A DNA stretch of 40,342 bases from assembly GCA_020631545.1 (NCBI GenBank), contig JAHDHB010000002.1, positions 3,669-44,010 of the forward strand, written 5' to 3'. Every line of letters starts with the position of its first letter. The first letter of the stretch is position 1. Source of the DNA: Saprospiraceae bacterium. Its GTDB lineage: Bacteria > Bacteroidota > Bacteroidia > Chitinophagales > Saprospiraceae. Both the position numbers and the translations under genes were made by a program. The notes under the pieces were generated by a model. It was not told where the DNA came from, made no database searches, and worked only from the letters and a program-made list of their open reading frames with translations. Positions 25,695 through 40,340 of the stretch are shown here, piece after piece.

Positions 25695-25728
25695 AAAAGC
25701 CACGAGATTTATTTCGTGGCTTTTTTTG
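25695..25728 (+). terminator. Rho-independent terminator after sucA
   Basis: AAAAGCCACGA gatttatt TCGTGGCTTTTTTT stem with T tract. Confidence 0.85.
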
Positions 25729-25776: not shown

Positions 25777-26763
25777 TTAAGGAGGAGAAATGTGTTTATC
25801 TTCCTCCAGTAAGATTTTTAAAATCGGCCAATAATCTGCTTTAACTAAGTCCTGAAAACGGATAATTTTGTGTTTATTGAGATATTGGAAAAAAGAACAA
25901 ATAGAACTATGAATTTCTTCCAAGATACGAAGCTCCTGAATTTCACCGATAATATTTGTTTGCTCGTGTTTTTGTAGCAAAGTTTTTAAATTTTGCACTT
26001 GTTCTCCCCAGTATTTATAATAATCATCTCTACCTTCAGGTGCGAAGTATTTAGCATCCCCAAGAAGAATGGGCAAAATTCTGTCTTTAAAATCTAACTC
26101 TTTCATCAATTCTAGAATTTCATACATACAAGATTTTGATTTTAGGAATTCGTCACTGATAAGAACAATAGCATGAGGCGTTTTCCTGATTTTTTCCATG
26201 AATTCTTTAATAGAAGCGCCTAGCATAAGCCTTCTTGTATCCCGTTCAAGAACAATCTCAAATTTCTGCCTAAAATCGTTATCCACTTGGTCAGCTTCTT
26301 CTTTATTTTTATGACAATAAGCTAAAAATATTTTCTTGTCCTTCAAGTCTTTAACAGACAGTTCGTAAAAGGGATATTGATGTCCAATCATATTTATTTT
26401 CTGATAAAAATTGGTATGATAATGATAAATATCTTTATCCATAGACGAGTGCGCAACGAGGTATTTTGCATGATGCGGAATTCGTTCTCCTTTATGAAAA
26501 TTGTAGGTTCCTACAGGCAAAAAAACTTGGGTAGACTTGCCATCTCTACCGGTCTCTACATAACCAATAATTCCCATTCGGTAGAGCGAATCAAAAGCAG
26601 AGCTAGGAAAATCGGTTTCTTCAATAACGATTTGGTCGATCTCTTTCGCATTTTTTATGGGAATCACATTAGATTCAATCAAGCTACAAACGACATTATA
26701 GGCATCATTTTTAAAAAAGGGAATCATCTCAAACTTATACTGACGTAAGAGGATATTACTCAT
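25777..26763 (-). CDS. TIR-domain protein, with an N-terminal segment that looks like the continuation of the upstream ATPase
   Basis: TIR features: KDKKIFLAYCHKNKEEADQVDNDFRQKFEIVLERDTRRLMLGASIKEFMEKIRKTPHAIVLISDEFLKSKSCMYEILELMKEL, including the C..E position expected for the catalytic Glu. The preceding ~125 aa contain a winged-helix-like stretch. Confidence 0.85.
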   Translation of the reverse strand: MSNILLRQYKFEMIPFFKNDAYNVVCSLIESNVIPIKNAKEIDQIVIEETDFPSSAFDSLYRMGIIGYVETGRDGKSTQVFLPVGTYNFHKGERIPHHAKYLVAHSSMDKDIYHYHTNFYQKINMIGHQYPFYELSVKDLKDKKIFLAYCHKNKEEADQVDNDFRQKFEIVLERDTRRLMLGASIKEFMEKIRKTPHAIVLISDEFLKSKSCMYEILELMKELDFKDRILPILLGDAKYFAPEGRDDYYKYWGEQVQNLKTLLQKHEQTNIIGEIQELRILEEIHSSICSFFQYLNKHKIIRFQDLVKADYWPILKILLEEDKHISPP

Positions 26764-26775
26764 ATCATTTACGGC

Positions 26776-27840
26776 TTACCGAATTGCTGTTGCTGTTCTA
26801 TTATTAGCTTTGATCCCATAACAAATACTTGCACCAATAGCTACAATTTCTCTTGGACGGCGAAAGGAATGCCTTAGGATAAAATCAAAAACATTTTCCT
26901 TTCTTTTTCTGCCGTATTCATTTCTTACAAATCTATGTTCGATTTCATCGAAGCCAAGAAAACGAACTAAAGCCTCCTTAGCCTTTGGTTTCACCAAATC
27001 ACGAGTAGCTGTTTTATTAATGTTTCGAATAAAAATATCACGTAACTCTTCATCGGTATAGTTCAATTCCGTCGTGTAATTAAGATCTTGCAGAACCGTA
27101 GACGAATTTACAAGAGCATAAGCTTCGCTACGAATAGAAGCAAAAATCTTAATATGTCGATTGGCTTCACATAGGTTCTTGACTGCTTCCCGCAAACCTA
27201 TTTGAGCATTTATCCAAACCCAAGGAGATAAGACGTGGTTTTTTTTCGCTTTCTGTAAATCATAATAAGTATCTCCTACATGTTTGTCAAATGCCTCATC
27301 TACATTATCAATAAAAACAGCAACTTGAGAAGTCAGGCCTTCAAAAACAGGCGATAACTCCTTAAAAACTAAATTATAGTACTTGTGAATTTTGTTCCTA
27401 TCTTCAAGGATACAGAAGAGAATATCTTTTAGTTTTTTCGCTTTGCCAAGAAGAGGCTCTAACTTTTTTGGGAGTTTTTCCGGCATTAAATTTTGAACAA
27501 TAAGCAGGTGTAGTGCTAAAGTCCAAATCATACGCCATACATCTATGCGCTTGTATTTATTCAGTTCTTTTATGGAAAAATGAGTATCCAATTCAACCAA
27601 ACGCTCGCTTAGGTCATTGACGGGAATACATTTAAAGCCTGATTTAGCTCTATACTGCTTACTTTTGGCTTTCAGCAATAAGGTTTTACCAAAACCTTTA
27701 GGCGCTACGATGAAGTACTTGCAGTCATTTTCATCGGTTTTAAGGTAAGTTCGAATAGATTGGTTATAGACAATATGTCTTTCCAGATCATCCAAATCTT
27801 TCAATTTGATGGTATTAGCATCTGTGTTCCATGCTATCAT
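26776..27840 (-). CDS. P-loop ATPase (resembles Sll1717-type ATPases), ORF closed by a TAA in frame with the TIR ORF
   Basis: Walker A-like YFIVAPKGFGKTLLLKAKS, Walker B-like VAVFIDNVDEAFD, and RRPREIVAIG near the C-terminus. The ORF ends TATAIR-TAA and is followed in the same frame by AVND-MSNILL. Confidence 0.85.
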   Translation of the reverse strand: MIAWNTDANTIKLKDLDDLERHIVYNQSIRTYLKTDENDCKYFIVAPKGFGKTLLLKAKSKQYRAKSGFKCIPVNDLSERLVELDTHFSIKELNKYKRIDVWRMIWTLALHLLIVQNLMPEKLPKKLEPLLGKAKKLKDILFCILEDRNKIHKYYNLVFKELSPVFEGLTSQVAVFIDNVDEAFDKHVGDTYYDLQKAKKNHVLSPWVWINAQIGLREAVKNLCEANRHIKIFASIRSEAYALVNSSTVLQDLNYTTELNYTDEELRDIFIRNINKTATRDLVKPKAKEALVRFLGFDEIEHRFVRNEYGRKRKENVFDFILRHSFRRPREIVAIGASICYGIKANNRTATAIR

Positions 27841-28895: not shown

Positions 28896-30197
28896 ATGAA
28901 AAATTTATTTTTTTCCATTTTCTTTTTTGTATTTGCTTTTGCATTTCATTCATGCAATGAAGATGAACTCCTTCTTTCTCAAGAGGATGAAACCACTGCT
29001 GTTTTTTCAAATGCTGAAGCAACGGCAATGGAGACTCCTGAGTATTCAGCAGCTCTTCAGCGTTTTGTAAGCTATGAGTATCCTAATCAATCTATCCAAA
29101 ATCTAGCTGCCTTTAAGATTGATCAAACAGAGTACTATAGCATTACGCTCAACAATGAGCTTCAAATCACTGTTCCTACTGAAGATGTAAATTCTTACAG
29201 ACCAAGTAGAACACGTGGTGGTGGTACTACGGATACTGGTACAACGAACACGGGTACAACAAACACGACAGATACAGGAACAACGAACACGACGCATACG
29301 GGTACAACGAATACAACGAATACAACGAATACCCATACAGGTACTTGTACAGACACTCATTCTGGTACGCATACTGGAAGTCATTCACACTCTCATTCTC
29401 ATACTCATACTGGAACAGGTACAAATACTTGTACTAACACTCACACAAGTACGACAGGTACGCATACGGGTACAGGCACTTGTACGGACACTCATTCTGG
29501 TACGCATACAGGAAGCCATACTCATTCTAACACACATACCCATACTGGTAGTACTTCTACTTGTACTAATACTCACACGGGTACAACAGGAACTCATACG
29601 GGTACAGGGACTTGTACAGACACTCATTCTGGTACGCATACGGGTACGCACACTCATTCGAATACGCATACGCACACGGGTACTGGGACTACGACTTGTA
29701 CTGATACGCACACTAGTACAAATACAGGTACTGGTACTACGAATGACGATGATGATGATGGTACGCATACCACGAATACCACAAACGATGATGATGATGA
29801 TGGTACGCACACAACAAATACCACAAATGATGATGACGATGATGGTACAAGTACTACAACAGGTACTACAGATACGACTACAGATGATGACGATGATGCA
29901 GGACAACCCTGTAATGCACCTGGTACGCCAAGTGTAATGATTTTCAATGGAGGAACAGCAGCCGTTGTCTACTGGAGCCCTGTTTTTGATGCTTCCTCTT
30001 ATACCGTTCAGTATAGAGCGCATGGTACAGCTACCTTTACGATTATCCAAGCTGCGAATAATATCGTTATGATACCTTCTTTGGTCTTTTGCCAAAACTA
30101 TGAAGTCATCGTGACTGCAAATTGTTCTGCTGGTGCTTCTCAACCTAGCCCAACTGCTTCTTTCCAAACTGTTTACGGTTCAAGTGGCCCTTGCTAA
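28896..30197 (+). CDS. Lipoprotein with X-Thr (His/Cys/Gly/Asp/Asn) dipeptide array, poly-Asp repeats and C-terminal FN3-like domain
   Basis: Lipobox-like MKNLFFSIFFFVFAFAFHSC; array GTCTDTHSGTHTGSHTHSNTHTHTGSTSTCTNTHTGTTGTHTGT; NDDDDDGTHTTNTT repeats; FN3-like tail PGTPSVMIFNGGTAAVVYWSPVFDASSYTVQYRAHGTATFTII. Confidence 0.88.
   Translation: MKNLFFSIFFFVFAFAFHSCNEDELLLSQEDETTAVFSNAEATAMETPEYSAALQRFVSYEYPNQSIQNLAAFKIDQTEYYSITLNNELQITVPTEDVNSYRPSRTRGGGTTDTGTTNTGTTNTTDTGTTNTTHTGTTNTTNTTNTHTGTCTDTHSGTHTGSHSHSHSHTHTGTGTNTCTNTHTSTTGTHTGTGTCTDTHSGTHTGSHTHSNTHTHTGSTSTCTNTHTGTTGTHTGTGTCTDTHSGTHTGTHTHSNTHTHTGTGTTTCTDTHTSTNTGTGTTNDDDDDGTHTTNTTNDDDDDGTHTTNTTNDDDDDGTSTTTGTTDTTTDDDDDAGQPCNAPGTPSVMIFNGGTAAVVYWSPVFDASSYTVQYRAHGTATFTIIQAANNIVMIPSLVFCQNYEVIVTANCSAGASQPSPTASFQTVYGSSGPC
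29218..29905 (+). repeat. Coding repeat block: three 132-135 bp units, then 42-bp poly-Asp units
   Basis: ACTTGTACxGACACTCATTCTGGTACGCAT recurs with unit starts at about 29340, 29475 and 29607. AATGAC/AACGAT-GAT-rich NDDDDDGTHTTNTT 42-bp units start at about 29742. Confidence 0.88.
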
Positions 30198-30903: not shown

Positions 30904-33900
30904 CTATCTAGGAATTATAGAGTAAATGCCGTTATTCTTCGTCCAAATAATTTTATCAACAGCATTGACATCGCCATCTAAATTCAGATCGCCTAGAAGA
31001 TAGGCATTAAAACTTCCATTCTCTGTACTGAATCTCACCTTGTCATCTCCAGAAATATCATAACCAGAAACATCATACTGTTGCTCTGCATCTCCAGCAA
31101 ACATAGCCCATCTATTTGGTGCCACTGTTGCTTGCCCTTGGCTTGCCCCTACGGCATAACTATCTTGACTTCTAAAGTCATAAGTTAGAGTATTGTTATT
31201 CAATTCGATAGCTTGAGGAGTAAGTACGCCTATATGGTTACGGTGTTCAATCAAAACATAATAGGAAGTTTCTTCAGGATCGAAAGGCATACAATCAGCG
31301 ACGAAGACGATGCGGCCATCCCGTTCAAGCAAAGCGGCTGTTTTATAGATTTCCGTACTCCGCTCAACTCCTGTACGTACAGAAACCAAAACCCAGTCAA
31401 CGACTTCATTATTGTAGCTGGTGCTATCAAACTCTATACCTTCTTCCCCTAAGTAATTCCAAGGAGGGCCAGAATAAGGATGTCCAACATTAGGCAATAA
31501 GGGCGATTGCCCTGGCAAAATACGATGTACCGTATTCAACATGGTGGTCATTTTCTCTGATGATGGGTCATAGGCGCCTTCTAGAAGAGCCCATAATTGG
31601 AGATCAACACAGCTTGGCCCTAGAATGGTCAGGAAAACTTTAGCCCGCTCGCATCGCTGCGGAATGCCGTTATCACATATTTGGTAAACAAATTCATCTG
31701 CGCCTACATAACCTGCATCAGGCATATACGTATAGTTGCCATCAGGCTGCATAATGACGACACCGTGTAAAGGACTACCGACTACCGTCACTTCCAAATC
31801 GTCCCTATTGCCATCAGGGTCACTGTCATTGGCAAGGACAAACCCAGCGTATAGGGTATTCATGGAAAGTGTATCACGATCAAACACGGCAAAAGGTGTG
31901 GCATTACAGATATCTACCTGTACCGTTACTTCATCTGTGGCTGAGCATCCATTTTTAGTCGCTGTGAGGGTATAAACGGTGGTCACAGGAGGATTAGCAA
32001 ATGTATTTCCTTCAAAAGGATGGCTAAGGCCAATATTAGGTGTCCATTCATACTGTGAGGTAGGAAAATTAGAATCTCCTCCAAGTAAAACACCCTGCAC
32101 ATCAGGATTAAAACACATCGACCGATCTACCCCTGCATCTAAAGCAGGCGGATACTTCCGCTCTACCACGACTTCATCCGTAGCGATACAACCATTCCTA
32201 TTTACTGTAACTGTATATGTTTTAGAAATCGGCGTATTTACTAAAGGATTAGGAGAAGTGGGGTCATCAAGTCCAATAGTCGGTGACCACGAATAAGTAA
32301 CACCAGCAAGAGGGCCAGTAGGTTCGCCACCGATGCGTACACCTTCTCCACAATCTGATTTATCACTCCCTGCATCAGCAAATAATTCGCCATTTTCGAC
32401 ATAGATAGTCACCTCATCTGTCAAGACACAGTTGCCGTAAGAAACGATTACTTGATAAGTGGTTGTCGTATCAGGATAAACTACAGGTTTTGCGACGGAG
32501 GTGTTATTGATGTTATAAGAAGGACTCCATTGAAAAACAGCTCCAAAGGGGCCCGTAGAGCTACCGCCTAATTGGACTGATTCTCCAGGACATAAGATGG
32601 AATTCTGCCCCGCATCTGCATAGGCTGCTTGCCCTACGGTAATGCTTTCCGTTTGGGTAACACTACAAATATCGTTGGTCACGGTTAAGCTAATTGTTTT
32701 TATTCCTCCAGTAGTATAAAGTACATTTTCTGTACGGTTGGTAGAGAATGAGGGGACTGCACCGCTTCCAAAAAACCACGTATAAGTAGCGTCAGCGCCT
32801 TGATCTTCTGCCTCAAAACTCGCGTAAGAGGTAGCACAAATTTGAGTAGGAAGAATCATCGTAGCAATAGGGCAAGGTGTAATCGAAATGAAAACATTTG
32901 CTTGGCTACATGCAGAAGGTTGACCATTATCACAAACTTCGTACACAAAGCTGTCTTGCCCCATAGAACCGATAGTTGGTGTGTACTCGAAGAAACCACT
33001 AGGGCTTAAGGTTAGACTACCTTTGGCAGGAGGAACGACGAGCGCGGGATTGGCTAGTAGTGCATTGTTTTCAATATCCGAATCATTACTCAAAAGATTG
33101 CCGGTTAAAGTCTCTCCCTCTATAGCTTCTAGATAGTCTGGTTGTGCTAGGGGAGCATCATTAACGTTGTTCACATAGATATTTACAACTCCTTGAGTAC
33201 ATTGAACTGGAGGAATACTCCCACTATCACAAATTTGATAGGTGAATGGTGTAACATTTCCATAAAAATCATTGGCAGGAATGAAGGTAAGTGTACCACC
33301 AGTATTGAGCAAAACTAATCCTTCTGAAGCCGGCGGAGAAGAAGTTAACGCTAAAGAAGTCGGGTTTAAATCGCCATCTATATCTATATCGTTTTCCAAA
33401 ACTAGGATATTGATAGGCACTTCTTCTGCTGCTTGTACATTATCGGTATTGGCTATCGGCCGATCATTTACAGGATTTACTTGTATACTTACGGTTGCTT
33501 GATCACAGAGGGAGGGGACACCATCATCACAAACAAGGTAAGTAAAATTATCAGTTCCATTATAGTCTACATCAGATAGATAAACAAAGACACCATTCGC
33601 CGCCATAGAGACTTGTCCATAAGTAGGTTCTACGATAAGTGTATTATTTACCGATAAAGTATTCCCATCCGCATCACTATCGTTGAGCAAGACATTCCCT
33701 AGTGCTGGCTCCTCCTCATTTGCAATTAAGACATCGTTCTGTGCAACGGGTGCATCATTTTCGGAGGTAACGGTAATGCTAAGCGCGGCTGTTGCGCAAC
33801 TAACGGGTAAGGGTGTTCCGGTATCACAAACTTCATAGGTCATAGATAAAGTACCAGCGAAGTTGGCAGCGGGCACAAAAGTCGCTTGGCCTTGATTGTC

Positions 33901-36900
33901 TACACTAAAAAAACCTTGACTAGCAGTAGGAAGTGGGTAGAATTGTAAGGTCGAGATATCAAGCTGTCCGTCAATATCGTTATCATTGTCCAGTACATTA
34001 AAAAAGACTGGGGTACCTTCATTGGTCGTTACATTATCTGGGGCTAGGTTGGGAGCATCATTTTGGGGCAAAACAGTAATGTAAACCGTAGCATTTGCAC
34101 AGAAGGAGGGCGTACTACCGTCACAAGCTCTATAGACAAAGCTATCTTGCCCCGAAAAATTGGGGTTAGGTGTGTAGTAAATATCCCCACTGGTTTGTAG
34201 CCCAAGTGTACCATTCGTCGGAAATACGACGGGTGATCCATCAATAGAGACAAAATTGCCATTGGGATCTAAATCATTGGATAAGACGTTGGCTCCCACA
34301 AATTCATCTTCATTGGTGACCAAGTAATCATCTTGAGGAGTAGGCGTATTATTGCAACTCTGCGTGGTAATAATTTGCTCGGTCGCATCAGCACATTCGA
34401 AATATTGAATGGCTAGAGCGACCTTGTAGTTGCCGATAGCATCCCAAGAGCTTGTAGCAGCCAAGGCATTGGAGAAACCAGGATCCCCATTTTCAAAAAG
34501 CCAAGTATAGTTCATTCCTGGTCGATTTTCATTGGCCAAGAAAATTGTTGGCGTATTTGTACAAACATCCTCTGTTGGAATGGTAAAATTAGCTGTGGGG
34601 CAAGGAACATTTTCTCGTCCTGGCGTCCCATTGGCCGAAGAAGCTTCCCAGTTCTGCGCCAAGGCATTATCCGAAAGAGGATCGATTAAGGAAAGCGAAG
34701 GCCCAAAGCCGTCGGGTTCTGTAGGCCAAGGAGCTGCATCATCATAATGAACAACATCAGCGAAGCAACGATTCGTATCAAAAAGTCGAATTTTCTCCCC
34801 TCCACTACTCAAGGTAAAACCAAGGGGCCCAAGGAAATTTTGAACGGTAGGATAAGCAGCCGCGAAGAAGCTGACATCCGAAACTAAGACTAAAAATCCA
34901 TTCGGAGGAATAATCGTATTGGCAGGAAATTCGTAAGCTTTAGCAACATCATGCAATTCCCACCCCGTAAGATCCACTGCTACAGAAGAAGTATTGTGAA
35001 GCTCTAACCAATCGCCAGGAATAAACGTAGCTGAAGATTTGTAATTGATTTCATTGATGACAATGCCATGGTCTACCCCATCACAAAAATTTGTATTAGC
35101 AGCGCCAGGCGTACCCGAGGCATTGGTAGAAGGCGCCCAGTTTTCTCCTAGGGTATTGTCCAAGGCTGGGTCTATTAAGGATAGTGAAGGGCCTTCTCCA
35201 GTAAGCCCCTCAGGCCAAGGAGCTACATTGTCATAGTCTATAGCATCAACAACGCAACTTTCCTCGCTAAGCAACTGAATTTTTTCGCCTCCAGCACTAA
35301 ACCCAAAAACTAAATTGCCTACATAATTGGAAACCTCGGGGTATACTGCCGTGAAGAAAGTGTCATTTTCTACCAGTGCTAAGTAGCCGCCAGCGGGAAT
35401 AGTAGTTCCTACAGGCACGAAAAAATTAAATTTGGAATCTTGCAATTGCCAATTGGAAATATCCACTGCATTGGCGGTAGGATTGTGCAACTCTACCCAA
35501 TCCCCACTATCATAAGTAGCTAGAGGATAAGAAGTAACCTCATTAATAACCAAACCAGCAGGATTGGCATAGCAAGGATTTGAATTCTCTGCGTTTGGCG
35601 TACCACAATCCGGTACAGAAGGATGCCAATTCCCAAAAAGATCATTATCCAAATCAGAATTGGTTAGCTCTAGAGAGGGGCCTTCTTCATCTGGAGAAGT
35701 AGGCCAAGGCGCATCATCATCATAGGAGACTTCATCAATGAGGTTGCCATTTGGATCGACTAAAGCGACAAGTTCTCCATTTCCCGACAATTTGCCTATG
35801 TACTCTCCATAGGCAGGAAAACCAAAGATCGCCAAAAAGGCATCCGAGTCGTTGGTCAAGACTAAAAATCCATTAGGAGGGATGATAGCATCTTCTTCAA
35901 ATCGGAAACGTAAGCCTTCTTCAAAATAGCTGTGTTTTAGATTGATTGGTGTGTTTCCTTTATTTTTAAACTCGATAAACTCCGCATTATTACAAGGATC
36001 ACTTGGCCCGTATTGTAGTTCATTGATGACAATGTTTGAGTAATCTTGAGGGCTGTAAAAAGTTCGTGGACACATAGCACTCCAGTTATCCCCACTTTTC
36101 ACTCTAGCTTTTAAGGTTGTTACTCCTTGTAAGGCAATTGGAGAGGAATAGATTTGAGCGGTAGGAGAAATCCCCCCACCAAAACTTCTAGGATCCGAGC
36201 CATCTGTAGTATAATAGACTGTGCCATAACCGTTAGGATTGGTCACTGTGAGAGAACCATTTGGAAGGTTACCACCGTATTGAGAAAGTTGTACGGCTTG
36301 GAGGCTACTCGGATAGTATCCTTTATTCTTATAAAAATTGACAAGATTGGTGGAACGATTTTGAAAAAACACATTGATAACGTCTTCCACTTCGACCCTC
36401 CATTCATCATCCATTGACCAAGAGTCTGGAGCCCATCTTACCGTTTCTGCCAACAAAGGCAGCTCAATGCTGTTACTTCTCTCCCGATAAAGCGGCTCAA
36501 GATGCGTTCTCGTCAATAATCCTTCATTAAAGCAATGGCATTGCACACGGTCACCCAACAACACCCTAAACTCTTCTGCATCAAGCAATTCCGAAGGAAT
36601 AGGCCCTGTTTTATGCGTTCCATCATAATTGACCAAAGCCCCATAATAATCTTCAAAGGTTCCTACATTTCCTAGGGTCAAATCAACATCCCAAATCATG
36701 AATTGGTAGGCCTGCTTTCCTGCATTGATATTGGTGGCTCCTAGGCTGTTATGATTTTGGGACCAATCAAAGTTGGCTATCCAATGATTCAGCACCAAAT
36801 AATCAGCGGCCCGCTGTAAATTGACATAATTAGACAGCCCTGTGTAGTAAAACTCAAGGTTTAAGTTGAAGTTTTCTACATAACTTTCAAACTGGTCATA

Positions 36901-37854
36901 GAATGGAGGCGAAATAGGTTGATCAAGATAATTCCCATTTTTACGCGTTTCATAATGACTCTTTTTCCCACCATAATACTCTCTAAGAAACCCCGCTGTC
37001 GTTCGTTCCATAAGGTGATATTGCCCCATGTATTCGCCATTGACATAGGTATGTACATAGCGCCCATGCGGTGCAGGATACCCCAATTCTAATTCCCGAT
37101 CAAAAAGAAAGCGGTTACGGAGAAATTGCGGATCCCTAAGGTTACCGTATTCCGCATTCAGACCATCTTGGCTCCCTGCTCGTAGTAGCAACTCATCAAA
37201 GGTAGAAGTAGGTCGAATACCGTATTCAAAGCCATCATCAAAAATAGGATATTCCAGCTCTTTGGCTCCATATTGAGATTTGAATTCTAAGCGATAATTC
37301 TTCTTAGGATTATCGGGACTCCCTCCCCAAGTTTGAATACCACAATGAATATTAAAAGCAGAGGTGCCATCGGGAAAAAATAACTCTACAGAAGTTTCCA
37401 CTTCATCATCAACATGATTGTTAGAAACGACATCGGATGAGGTAATAGAAACCGTAGGAATTTCAAGCAAAGCATTTTTAACCAATTGGTTGTAAATAGG
37501 ATTGCTTTGAATAGGATGATTCATATACCCACTATTCATGATGTCATTGAGAAAAATGTAGGTATGTGTTTCAACATCCGTTTCACTTACAGGCGTATAG
37601 GCCATGGCACGAATGTTATCCGTACCAGAAATGCTTATCGGACCATTGTAAATGCTTCCGTTCGTAATACTCGGTTTAGTGTTATCTCTTGTATAACGAA
37701 TTACCGCAGTTGGTTCATCAGCGGTCAACGTTAATAAGAAAGGTGTTTCATAAAACCCTCGTTCAGAACTAAAGGTAAGCGAACTAACCGTTTGTCCAAA
37801 AACAGAAAAACTTAGTCCAATGAGCAGTAGGGTAAATAGGTTCGAATAATGCAT
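30904..37854 (-). CDS. Giant secreted CotH-kinase-like protein with chitobiase-C-like, lamin-tail, PKD-like, tandem-95/cadherin-like and dockerin-like C-terminal regions
   Basis: Signal peptide; CotH-like block GIQTWGGSPDNPKKNYRLEFKSQYG...RNRFLFDRELELGYPAPHGRYVHTYVNGEYMGQYHLMERT; lamin-tail-like VINEVTSYPLATYDSGDWVELHNPT; tandem-95-like NDAPVAQNDVLIANEEEPALGNVLLNDSDADG; C-terminal GDLNLDGDVNAVDKIIWTKNNGIYSIIPR. Confidence 0.9.
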   Translation of the reverse strand: MHYSNLFTLLLIGLSFSVFGQTVSSLTFSSERGFYETPFLLTLTADEPTAVIRYTRDNTKPSITNGSIYNGPISISGTDNIRAMAYTPVSETDVETHTYIFLNDIMNSGYMNHPIQSNPIYNQLVKNALLEIPTVSITSSDVVSNNHVDDEVETSVELFFPDGTSAFNIHCGIQTWGGSPDNPKKNYRLEFKSQYGAKELEYPIFDDGFEYGIRPTSTFDELLLRAGSQDGLNAEYGNLRDPQFLRNRFLFDRELELGYPAPHGRYVHTYVNGEYMGQYHLMERTTAGFLREYYGGKKSHYETRKNGNYLDQPISPPFYDQFESYVENFNLNLEFYYTGLSNYVNLQRAADYLVLNHWIANFDWSQNHNSLGATNINAGKQAYQFMIWDVDLTLGNVGTFEDYYGALVNYDGTHKTGPIPSELLDAEEFRVLLGDRVQCHCFNEGLLTRTHLEPLYRERSNSIELPLLAETVRWAPDSWSMDDEWRVEVEDVINVFFQNRSTNLVNFYKNKGYYPSSLQAVQLSQYGGNLPNGSLTVTNPNGYGTVYYTTDGSDPRSFGGGISPTAQIYSSPIALQGVTTLKARVKSGDNWSAMCPRTFYSPQDYSNIVINELQYGPSDPCNNAEFIEFKNKGNTPINLKHSYFEEGLRFRFEEDAIIPPNGFLVLTNDSDAFLAIFGFPAYGEYIGKLSGNGELVALVDPNGNLIDEVSYDDDAPWPTSPDEEGPSLELTNSDLDNDLFGNWHPSVPDCGTPNAENSNPCYANPAGLVINEVTSYPLATYDSGDWVELHNPTANAVDISNWQLQDSKFNFFVPVGTTIPAGGYLALVENDTFFTAVYPEVSNYVGNLVFGFSAGGEKIQLLSEESCVVDAIDYDNVAPWPEGLTGEGPSLSLIDPALDNTLGENWAPSTNASGTPGAANTNFCDGVDHGIVINEINYKSSATFIPGDWLELHNTSSVAVDLTGWELHDVAKAYEFPANTIIPPNGFLVLVSDVSFFAAAYPTVQNFLGPLGFTLSSGGEKIRLFDTNRCFADVVHYDDAAPWPTEPDGFGPSLSLIDPLSDNALAQNWEASSANGTPGRENVPCPTANFTIPTEDVCTNTPTIFLANENRPGMNYTWLFENGDPGFSNALAATSSWDAIGNYKVALAIQYFECADATEQIITTQSCNNTPTPQDDYLVTNEDEFVGANVLSNDLDPNGNFVSIDGSPVVFPTNGTLGLQTSGDIYYTPNPNFSGQDSFVYRACDGSTPSFCANATVYITVLPQNDAPNLAPDNVTTNEGTPVFFNVLDNDNDIDGQLDISTLQFYPLPTASQGFFSVDNQGQATFVPAANFAGTLSMTYEVCDTGTPLPVSCATAALSITVTSENDAPVAQNDVLIANEEEPALGNVLLNDSDADGNTLSVNNTLIVEPTYGQVSMAANGVFVYLSDVDYNGTDNFTYLVCDDGVPSLCDQATVSIQVNPVNDRPIANTDNVQAAEEVPINILVLENDIDIDGDLNPTSLALTSSPPASEGLVLLNTGGTLTFIPANDFYGNVTPFTYQICDSGSIPPVQCTQGVVNIYVNNVNDAPLAQPDYLEAIEGETLTGNLLSNDSDIENNALLANPALVVPPAKGSLTLSPSGFFEYTPTIGSMGQDSFVYEVCDNGQPSACSQANVFISITPCPIATMILPTQICATSYASFEAEDQGADATYTWFFGSGAVPSFSTNRTENVLYTTGGIKTISLTVTNDICSVTQTESITVGQAAYADAGQNSILCPGESVQLGGSSTGPFGAVFQWSPSYNINNTSVAKPVVYPDTTTTYQVIVSYGNCVLTDEVTIYVENGELFADAGSDKSDCGEGVRIGGEPTGPLAGVTYSWSPTIGLDDPTSPNPLVNTPISKTYTVTVNRNGCIATDEVVVERKYPPALDAGVDRSMCFNPDVQGVLLGGDSNFPTSQYEWTPNIGLSHPFEGNTFANPPVTTVYTLTATKNGCSATDEVTVQVDICNATPFAVFDRDTLSMNTLYAGFVLANDSDPDGNRDDLEVTVVGSPLHGVVIMQPDGNYTYMPDAGYVGADEFVYQICDNGIPQRCERAKVFLTILGPSCVDLQLWALLEGAYDPSSEKMTTMLNTVHRILPGQSPLLPNVGHPYSGPPWNYLGEEGIEFDSTSYNNEVVDWVLVSVRTGVERSTEIYKTAALLERDGRIVFVADCMPFDPEETSYYVLIEHRNHIGVLTPQAIELNNNTLTYDFRSQDSYAVGASQGQATVAPNRWAMFAGDAEQQYDVSGYDISGDDKVRFSTENGSFNAYLLGDLNLDGDVNAVDKIIWTKNNGIYSIIPR

Positions 37855-38909: not shown

Positions 38910-40340
38910 ATGAATGATATGCTCGAAAAGCTTCTTGTTGAGCTTAAAGCTAAGGGGATTCGTCTAATCCTTCAAGGTGGTAAATTAGAGGTCAAATCTA
39001 ATAAAAAAATTGCTTCGGCTGATTTGCTAAAAATACAACAGGTTAAAGAGATAGTTTTAACCTACCTTACGTCTACTTCCAACAAACGTTTTTTAGCTGA
39101 TAATCAACAAAGAAGGCTTTGGAACCTAGAGCGGCAATATGTTGAATCGCCTAGGTACAATCAGGCGCTACCTTTTCATATAGAAGAAAAGATGGACGAG
39201 TATTTTTTGCGAGATTCTCTAAGGAAAGTAGTCCTTGCTTTTCCTCAATTACGGCTACGATTTCAAGAGGTCGAGGGACAACTCCATAAGTTTCATGATC
39301 TTTCTCCAAAATGTATTCAATTAGACCTTATTGATTTACCGAATCATGAATGTACTGGTAGAAATCGCTTAAAAGAATATGTGCAGAAACCCTTTGACTT
39401 GGTTACAGGCCCTTGCTTCCGCCTAGGTTGCCTACGTTCTCCATCTACAAAACAAGACATCTTGGTTCTTGTTATGCATCAAATTATAGGCGATTATAGC
39501 TCAATGGCTACGTTTATGAGGGAACTGATGAAAGCTTATGCGGGGCAGCCAATCAGCCAACGTGCCTTCGAACAACAGCGGAAAACTATCCGCGAAAAGG
39601 CGACTTCGGTTCATTATTGGTTGAATAACTTAAGGGATGTACAACCCCTTAGTTTTCTTGAGAATAGGACTTGTACGCCTAGTACGAAGGGGCGAACGGT
39701 TTCTATTAATTTTTCAGTGGCCAACACCAACAAAATGCTGCGTTTTTGTGCAGATATGCAAGTACATCCTGCTGTTTTGCTCCAAACTTCTCTTCAGTTT
39801 TTCTTGCATAATTTATCGAAAGAGAGGGATTTTATTATTGCTACGCCATTAGACACGCGTGATGAGGTTACCGAGGATGGTGTTATTGCCAATTTCACTC
39901 GCTTGTTTCCTATTCGGGAGTCCATTTCTACCTCCAATAGCCTTGAGGAGGCGCTAAAAAAAGTAGAACTTTCTTTAGCTAAAATCATGCATTACAAGCA
40001 CATCCATTGTCAACGCTTAAGATCCATCATTAAGAAACAAAATACATGGTCTGTTGCTTTTCCGCCTTATCAAGTGCTTTTTCATTATATCAATTCTGTC
40101 AATTTTTTAAATAATGCTCTCCCTAGTCTTCGCCCTGTTTCCTTTGAACGCGGAATAGCGGATCTGGATCTTTCTTTTCAATGTATTTTAGACGCACAAG
40201 GTTTAATTTTTCAATTGGAATATCGAAATGAATTATTTGATGATAAATCGGGCATGGCTATTCTTATACAATTTACCCAACTTTGCAAGAAACTGGTAGA
40301 TACTAAAGGGGCTGCTTTTTTAACTAAAGCTTTTGCCTAA
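38910..40340 (+). CDS. Stand-alone NRPS condensation-domain-like protein with N-terminal TubC-type docking domain
   Basis: TubC-like MLEKLLVELKAKGIRLILQGGKLEVKSNKKIASADLLKIQQVKEIVLTYL; C-domain features LVMHQIIGDYSSMATFMRELMKAY, DTRDEVTEDGVIANFTRLFPIRES, SLAKIMHYKHIHCQRL. Stop TAA at 40338-40340. Confidence 0.85.
   Translation: MNDMLEKLLVELKAKGIRLILQGGKLEVKSNKKIASADLLKIQQVKEIVLTYLTSTSNKRFLADNQQRRLWNLERQYVESPRYNQALPFHIEEKMDEYFLRDSLRKVVLAFPQLRLRFQEVEGQLHKFHDLSPKCIQLDLIDLPNHECTGRNRLKEYVQKPFDLVTGPCFRLGCLRSPSTKQDILVLVMHQIIGDYSSMATFMRELMKAYAGQPISQRAFEQQRKTIREKATSVHYWLNNLRDVQPLSFLENRTCTPSTKGRTVSINFSVANTNKMLRFCADMQVHPAVLLQTSLQFFLHNLSKERDFIIATPLDTRDEVTEDGVIANFTRLFPIRESISTSNSLEEALKKVELSLAKIMHYKHIHCQRLRSIIKKQNTWSVAFPPYQVLFHYINSVNFLNNALPSLRPVSFERGIADLDLSFQCILDAQGLIFQLEYRNELFDDKSGMAILIQFTQLCKKLVDTKGAAFLTKAFA

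What the first reader, a model, noticed from the sequence alone, without database searches (positions are those of the whole stretch)
25777..27840. P-loop ATPase and TIR ORFs share one reading frame, split only by a single TAA
Seen directly: the ATPase ORF (27840-26776) ends CGG-TAA. The next codons GCC GTA AAT GAT ATG run straight into the TIR ORF (26763-25777) in the same frame. Replacing TAA with a Lys codon (one base) gives ...NNRTATAIRKAVNDMSNILLRQYKFEMIPFF..., one protein of about 687 aa: ATPase, winged-helix-like linker, TIR. TIR domains with the SKSCMYE-type Glu region are NAD+-cleaving effectors in Thoeris, CBASS, AVAST and plant NLRs. An ATPase-TIR fusion would fit an NLR-like sensor/effector defence protein. 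Alternatives are a nonsense-inactivated defence gene, an assembly error, programmed readthrough, or genuine fission with reinitiation at an ATG four codons later.
Basis: partly seen in the sequence, partly recalled or inferred. Interest (0 to 1): 0.8.

Follow-up and report, generated by a model that had tools for sequence, protein, structure and literature searches.

The report
Broken ATPase–TIR immune-type gene
One bacterial gene, apparently for an immune-type protein that joins an ATP-driven switch to a NAD-destroying TIR domain, is cut in two by a single stop codon in this assembly, while all of its recovered relatives that cross that point are made as one unbroken protein.

Summary
An ATPase ORF (27840-26776, - strand) and a TIR ORF (26763-25777) share one frame, separated by a single TAA and 12 nt. 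Tests show they are one gene by descent. Recovered relatives cross the stop position in one open frame, two of them with a C-terminal TIR or SEFIR domain. Conservation is equal on both sides of the stop. The NCBIfam Sll1717-ATPase model passes its cut-off only with the joined protein. A fold prediction puts the stop inside a helix between the AAA+ lid and a winged helix. The first ~135 residues of the "TIR ORF" therefore belong to the ATPase module, and only its C-terminal ~190 residues are effector. That effector is swapped among relatives: two unlike TIRs, SEFIR, a helical domain.

Most likely this is an ATPase–winged helix–TIR abortive-defence protein interrupted by a nonsense change, true in the organism or an assembly/base error; the reads would decide. 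A working two-chain form made by reinitiation is possible but less likely. No relative is split here, and no suppressor anticodon was seen among the recovered tRNAs. Function is inferred from families, not shown. The fusion idea is upheld, the stop is ordinary; the swappable-effector Sll1717 core is the mildly new part.

The parts
25777..27840 (-). Whole interrupted gene: AAA+/P-loop ATPase, winged helix, C-terminal TIR; 687 codons, one of them an internal TAA
26776..27840 (-). ORF A: ATPase domain and lid (joined residues 1-354)
   Evidence: NF047389 ATPase_Sll1717 65.2 bits alone, below the 75 cut-off; fold
27682..27696 (-). Walker A GFGKT (residues 49-53)
   Evidence: sequence; conserved in the family
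27295..27315 (-). Walker B-like FIDNVDE (residues 176-182)
   Evidence: sequence; conserved in the family
26848..26859 (-). RPRE motif in the lid, residues 328-331 (R328 nearly invariant, P329 and R330 invariant)
26776..26778 (-). In-frame TAA at codon 355, inside predicted helix 350-371; relatives carry various amino acids at this column
25777..26763 (-). ORF B: winged-helix part plus TIR (joined residues 360-687), with its own ATG 12 nt after the TAA
26521..26718 (-). Winged-helix-like part of the ATPase module (residues about 375-440; H-E-H-H-E-E)
   Evidence: AF2 core model; conserved in the 12 aligned sequences
26008..26331 (-). TIR_2 domain match (residues 504-611)
   Evidence: PF13676 E 2.4e-10
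26119..26121 (-). Putative catalytic Glu of the TIR (SKSCMYE, residue 574)
   Evidence: invariant in 8 aligned bacterial TIRs; same motif aligns with plant TIR-NLRs
25695..25724 (-). Terminator-like hairpin with T-run after ORF B; none found between A and B
   Evidence: one site, chance expectation 1.7, so only suggestive

Best explanation
The locus is one gene for a single-chain sensor/effector protein: an Sll1717-family AAA+ (ORC/Cdc6- and STAND-like) ATPase with its C-terminal winged helix, joined to a TIR domain of NADase type. Inferred working of an intact form: ATP-dependent assembly after a phage or stress cue brings TIR domains together, and these cleave NAD+ and stop the infected cell. 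In this assembly the gene is interrupted by one in-frame TAA in the helix that links the ATPase lid to the winged helix. The copy is therefore most likely non-functional as a fused protein, through a recent nonsense change in the organism; a base error in the assembly is scored apart as a rival. Shown: common frame, single stop, continuous homology, TIR and ATPase families. Inferred: function, assembly, NAD+ cleavage, and that the stop inactivates. (Common ancestry as one gene: about 0.95. The confidence given here is for a real, inactivating stop.)
For: Single-ORF relatives cross the site with no stop there: L003, L004, L005, L006, L007, L054, L056, L057, L077, plus plasmid proteins of Butyrivibrio and Undibacterium. 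R354 and V357, invariant in the first alignment, flank the stop codon; V357 is invariant in all 12. Strongly conserved columns: 11.9 per 100 before the stop, 12.1 per 100 in 355-494, 1.0 in the TIR part. NF047389: 65.2 bits for ORF A alone, 85.6 for the joined frame, matched 19-436, cut-off 75. Intact TIR-bearing single-ORF relative L057, TIR_2 4e-16; C-terminal SEFIR relative. Core model pTM 0.73 with residue 355 inside helix 350-371; best structural matches Cdc6/Orc1 Z 11.8 over residues 1-476 (rmsd 7.0, 337 aligned) and TIR-NLR WRR4A Z 9.9 (rmsd 6.2, 288 aligned). No split homologue found.
Against: No second lesion in 687 codons, and both halves keep their motifs, which a split but working pair would also show. 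An ATG lies 12 nt after the stop, close enough for partial reinitiation (PMC10666635). No close relative with the same TIR exists to date the lesion: the two genus mates lack the gene. The TIR has Ala where its relatives carry Ser or His-adjacent Ser in the strand-A motif (FLAY against FISY).
Confidence: 0.62

Rival explanations
1. Working fission: the stop is real and kept. Ribosomes ending at TAA restart at the ATG 12 nt on, giving an ATPase chain and a winged-helix–TIR chain that assemble, with TIR dosage below ATPase dosage.
For: Same frame, 12-nt gap and an intact ORF B with ATG. No terminator-like site found between the two. No other lesion. Reinitiation falls 40-80% at +13/+14 nt but is not nil (PMC10666635).
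Against: The cut is inside a predicted helix, not at a domain border. All other family members that cross the site are single chains. No stand-alone winged-helix–TIR protein was found; the nearest TIR proteins begin at the TIR itself.
Confidence: 0.18
2. Assembly or base error: the organism has an unbroken gene and the TAA is a wrong base or a minority allele in the assembled contig.
For: Draft of 674 contigs, 93.6% complete. All relatives are unbroken. Precedent: the Dictyostelium tirD locus was called two genes because of a stop in the reference that later genomes lack (PMC13142454).
Against: Substitution errors are rare in deep short-read consensus (general knowledge). Other window genes with Pfam hits match their domains without internal stops. 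Reads are not available.
Confidence: 0.15
3. Programmed readthrough of TAA gives some full-length protein.
For: The frame continues open to a conserved C-terminus.
Against: TAA is used as the ordinary stop by most genes in the window. None of the tRNAs that ARAGORN read in the recovered loci has a TAA-reading anticodon (genome incomplete). No known readthrough context was recognised. No relative has a stop here.
Confidence: 0.02
4. Two independent neighbouring genes, ATPase and TIR, that happen to share a frame.
For: Each has its own ATG and a plausible length.
Against: The first ~135 residues of ORF B are homologous to, and in relatives continuous with, the ATPase module.
Confidence: 0.02

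Closest known systems
P-loop ATPase, Sll1717 family (NCBIfam NF047389)
   Same: Joined protein passes the cut-off, 85.6 against 75 bits, over nearly the whole model
   Different: The model ends before the effector; this copy adds a TIR and carries an internal stop
G705 single-ORF ATPase–winged-helix–TIR protein (L057, 641 aa)
   Same: Same order of domains in one chain; 35% identity in the ATPase
   Different: Its TIR is not detectably alike by blastp, so the TIRs were probably gained separately; an 8xMP membrane-protein gene lies just upstream
Butyrivibrio pCY186 WP_013283038.1, SEFIR domain protein, and the PADLOC bSEFIR model
   Same: Sll1717 ATPase (130 bits) with a C-terminal TIR-like SEFIR in one chain
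   Different: SEFIR rather than TIR_2; distant ATPase
TIR-EAD11 protein of the same genome (L031)
   Same: Closest TIR domain found in the own genome: 34% over 179 residues, same C-terminal extension
   Different: EAD11 partner in place of an ATPase
Plant TIR-NLRs and bacterial STAND defence proteins such as Avs
   Same: TIR or another effector tied to an AAA+/STAND ATPase and winged helix
   Different: TIR at the C-terminus, no LRR/TPR sensor repeats found, sequence not related beyond the P-loop

Membership tests
Sll1717-family P-loop ATPase (NF047389) | Score above the curated cut-off of 75 bits over most of the model | tested here: met
   Joined frame 85.6 bits, model positions 13-425 of 454; ORF A alone 65.2, not met
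TIR domain (PF13676) | Score above the gathering cut-off of 28 bits | tested here: met
   41.4 bits, E 2.4e-10
TIR NADase | Catalytic Glu in the S/C-x-x-E region | tested here: met
   E574 in SKSCMYE, invariant in 8 aligned TIRs and aligned with plant TIR motifs
TIR NADase | NAD+ cleavage | not testable with these tools
   Needs enzyme assay
NLR / classical STAND receptor | AAA+ (STAND-like) ATPase followed by winged helix | tested here: inconclusive
   Core model has the layout; Z 11.8 Cdc6/Orc1 over 1-476, Z 9.9 WRR4A over 19-475; many AAA+ rows are tied, shared fold only
NLR / classical STAND receptor | C-terminal sensor repeats (LRR, TPR, WD40) | tested here: not met
   No repeat family in Pfam scans of either half; C-terminus is TIR
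Thoeris | Adjacent ThsA (SIR2 or other SLOG effector) | tested here: not met
   Neighbouring window genes are sucA and an unassigned 433-aa ORF; no SIR2/SLOG match among scanned ORFs
CBASS | Adjacent CD-NTase | tested here: not met
   No nucleotidyltransferase of that kind among scanned window ORFs
Known PADLOC defence system | Confident match to a PADLOC model | tested here: not met
   Only weak TIR-part matches: ThsB and SAVED_TIR, E 8e-4 to 4e-3

The most novel reading that the evidence does not exclude
The split is real and functional: an AAA+ immune switch is cut mid-helix between lid and winged helix and reassembles from two translationally coupled chains, so that TIR dosage is set by reinitiation efficiency, a fission not seen in its single-chain relatives.
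Probability: 0.17. Interest if true: 0.55.

Novelty: new variant of a known kind. Interest (0 to 1): 0.36.

Why it matters
The stop codon itself is of local interest: it shows a defence-type gene probably lost, or mis-assembled, in one genome. The wider point is that an Sll1717-type AAA+/winged-helix core carries exchangeable C-terminal effectors (two unlike TIRs, SEFIR, an unassigned helical domain, perhaps a cyclase-like domain). That marks it as a candidate family of sensor/effector immune proteins in Saprospiraceae and beyond. No paper naming Sll1717 was found in the searched open-access library. The unbroken TIR and SEFIR relatives are ready test objects.

Tried and rejected
Close relatives by pattern in genome contigs with the single protein: none; the alignment gave only five relatives, which appear to be the same contigs already found by the genome search. 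Viral contigs and phage records: none. Genus mates: no ATPase, only other TIR proteins. Synteny with them: the gene order after sucA differs, so no empty site could be shown. Tree of the core: placement of the window protein unresolved, so descent from the other TIR form could be neither shown nor excluded. First structure model of the whole frame: TIR part poor (pLDDT about 30-60), because no row shares that TIR; not used for the TIR. Suppressor tRNA: none among those read in the recovered loci. The idea that L077 carries a nucleotidyl cyclase rests on one weak NCBIfam match (3.7e-4), with no Pfam and no convincing PDB match; left open. GC3 of both halves is the same, 0.31, which does not separate the rivals. 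PMC11350192 is not held. The joined frame was folded with Gln as a placeholder at the stop; this is no claim about the original residue.

Full report
Observation. On the minus strand, ORF A (27840-26776) ends CGG TAA. The next four codons, GCC GTA AAT GAT, lead in the same frame into the ATG of ORF B (26763-25777). The 687-codon frame has one internal stop and no other lesion. In the whole window it is the only pair of stop-free stretches of at least 200 codons parted by a single stop. ORF B holds a TIR domain (TIR_2, 2.4e-10) at its residues 145-252. ORF A is a distant Sll1717-family P-loop ATPase (65 bits, cut-off 75).

One gene by descent. A search of 298 genomes of the same order with the joined frame returned relatives of 733-788 codons that align over residues up to 4-505 without any stop at the site. 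A search of the same family with an alignment added L054, L056 and L057, the phylum search added L077, and plasmid records gave Butyrivibrio and Undibacterium proteins. No relative is split at the site; the Neolewinella copy is incomplete only because a contig ends inside it. In the alignment of 12, strongly conserved columns are as dense in residues 355-494 as in 1-354 (12.1 and 11.9 per 100) and nearly vanish after 494 (1.0). The NCBIfam model NF047389 rises from 65.2 bits for ORF A to 85.6 for the joined frame and crosses the stop. So residues 360-495, the first part of ORF B, belong to the ATPase module.

Anatomy. The stop, residue 355, lies in that helix, in a block of mean pLDDT 89. The best solved matches span AAA+ and winged helix: Cdc6/Orc1 (Z 11.8, rmsd 7.0, 337 residues aligned) and, tied with many AAA+ rows, plant resistosomes such as the TIR-NLR WRR4A (Z 9.9, rmsd 6.2, 288 aligned). 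This is fold similarity, not membership. The TIR carries the expected Glu in SKSCMYE (E574), invariant in eight aligned bacterial TIRs, and its family profile finds plant TIR-NLRs, Cat1 and AbTIR in the PDB.

Swapped effectors. The C-terminus after residue ~495 differs among relatives: most have an unassigned helical domain, L057 has a TIR (4e-16), the Butyrivibrio protein has a SEFIR, and L077 has a domain with only a weak cyclase hint. The window TIR matches the TIR-EAD11 protein of its own genome (34%) but not the L057 TIR, so TIRs seem to have been joined to this core more than once. L057 lies just downstream of an 8xMP membrane-protein gene, and the Lewinella W8 relative just downstream of an EAD11 gene. 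EADs and TIRs are parts of prokaryotic conflict systems (PMC7159879, PMC8195603). This context supports, but does not prove, a defence role.

Surroundings of the window copy. It sits between sucA and an unassigned low-complexity ORF, in a stretch with GldL/M/N, PorP/SprF, hemD, an Omp85 protein and others; no defence island was seen. The two genus mates lack it, and their gene order after sucA differs. It is an accessory gene.

What the stop means. Because every recovered relative that crosses the site is one chain and the cut falls inside a helix, the simplest reading is a broken copy, by a real nonsense change or by a base error in a draft of 674 contigs. A precedent for the latter is the amoeba tirD locus, once called two genes because of a stop in the reference genome (PMC13142454). 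A working two-chain form cannot be excluded: the ATG is 12 nt past the stop, and reinitiation at +13 or +14 nt drops 40-80% in tested pairs but is not lost (PMC10666635). Readthrough is unlikely: TAA is an ordinary stop in the window and no suppressor anticodon was read in the recovered tRNA loci.

Verdict. Observation confirmed and fusion interpretation supported, with the boundary corrected. The copy is most likely a broken single-chain ATPase–TIR immune-type protein; the function is inferred. The mildly new element is the Sll1717 core with exchangeable effectors. Decisive evidence would be reads at the stop and expression data.

Noticed in passing
L057:717-1295 (G705): An 8xMP octameric membrane protein gene (PF24838, 5e-39) lies about 185 bp upstream of the unbroken ATPase–TIR gene on the same strand; a possible partner.
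   Followed up: partly
L047:3610-4491 (Lewinella sp. W8): A 293-aa EAD11 protein lies just upstream of the ATPase relative; EAD11 also partners the closest TIR in the window's own genome (L031).
   Followed up: partly
L078:40-2310 and L079: Sll1717-type ATPases with an extra N-terminal region that in L078 weakly matches the bSEFIR model, so the effector may sit at either end of this core.
   Followed up: partly
L077:1489-3564 (G994): Sll1717-type protein whose C-terminus has a weak nucleotidyl-cyclase hint; its upstream neighbour is a pentapeptide-repeat protein.
   Followed up: partly
window 28896-30197: 433-aa secreted-looking protein with long His/Thr/Gly tracts and DDDDDG repeats; no Pfam match.
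   Followed up: no
window 38910-40340: TubC_N docking plus condensation domain: start of a nonribosomal peptide synthetase running towards the window end.
   Followed up: no
window 30904-37854: 2316-aa surface protein with CotH kinase, lamin-tail and cadherin-like domains.
   Followed up: no
G000:C590:8155-8949: Tandem tRNA array with repeated Leu(tag)/Gly/Asp units; the Leu genes are only 73 nt long, odd for bacterial tRNA-Leu.
   Followed up: no
L008 and L062 (Neolewinella agarilytica G079): The ATPase relative seems divided between two contigs (end of C48 and C59), perhaps because of a repeat or an insertion.
   Followed up: no
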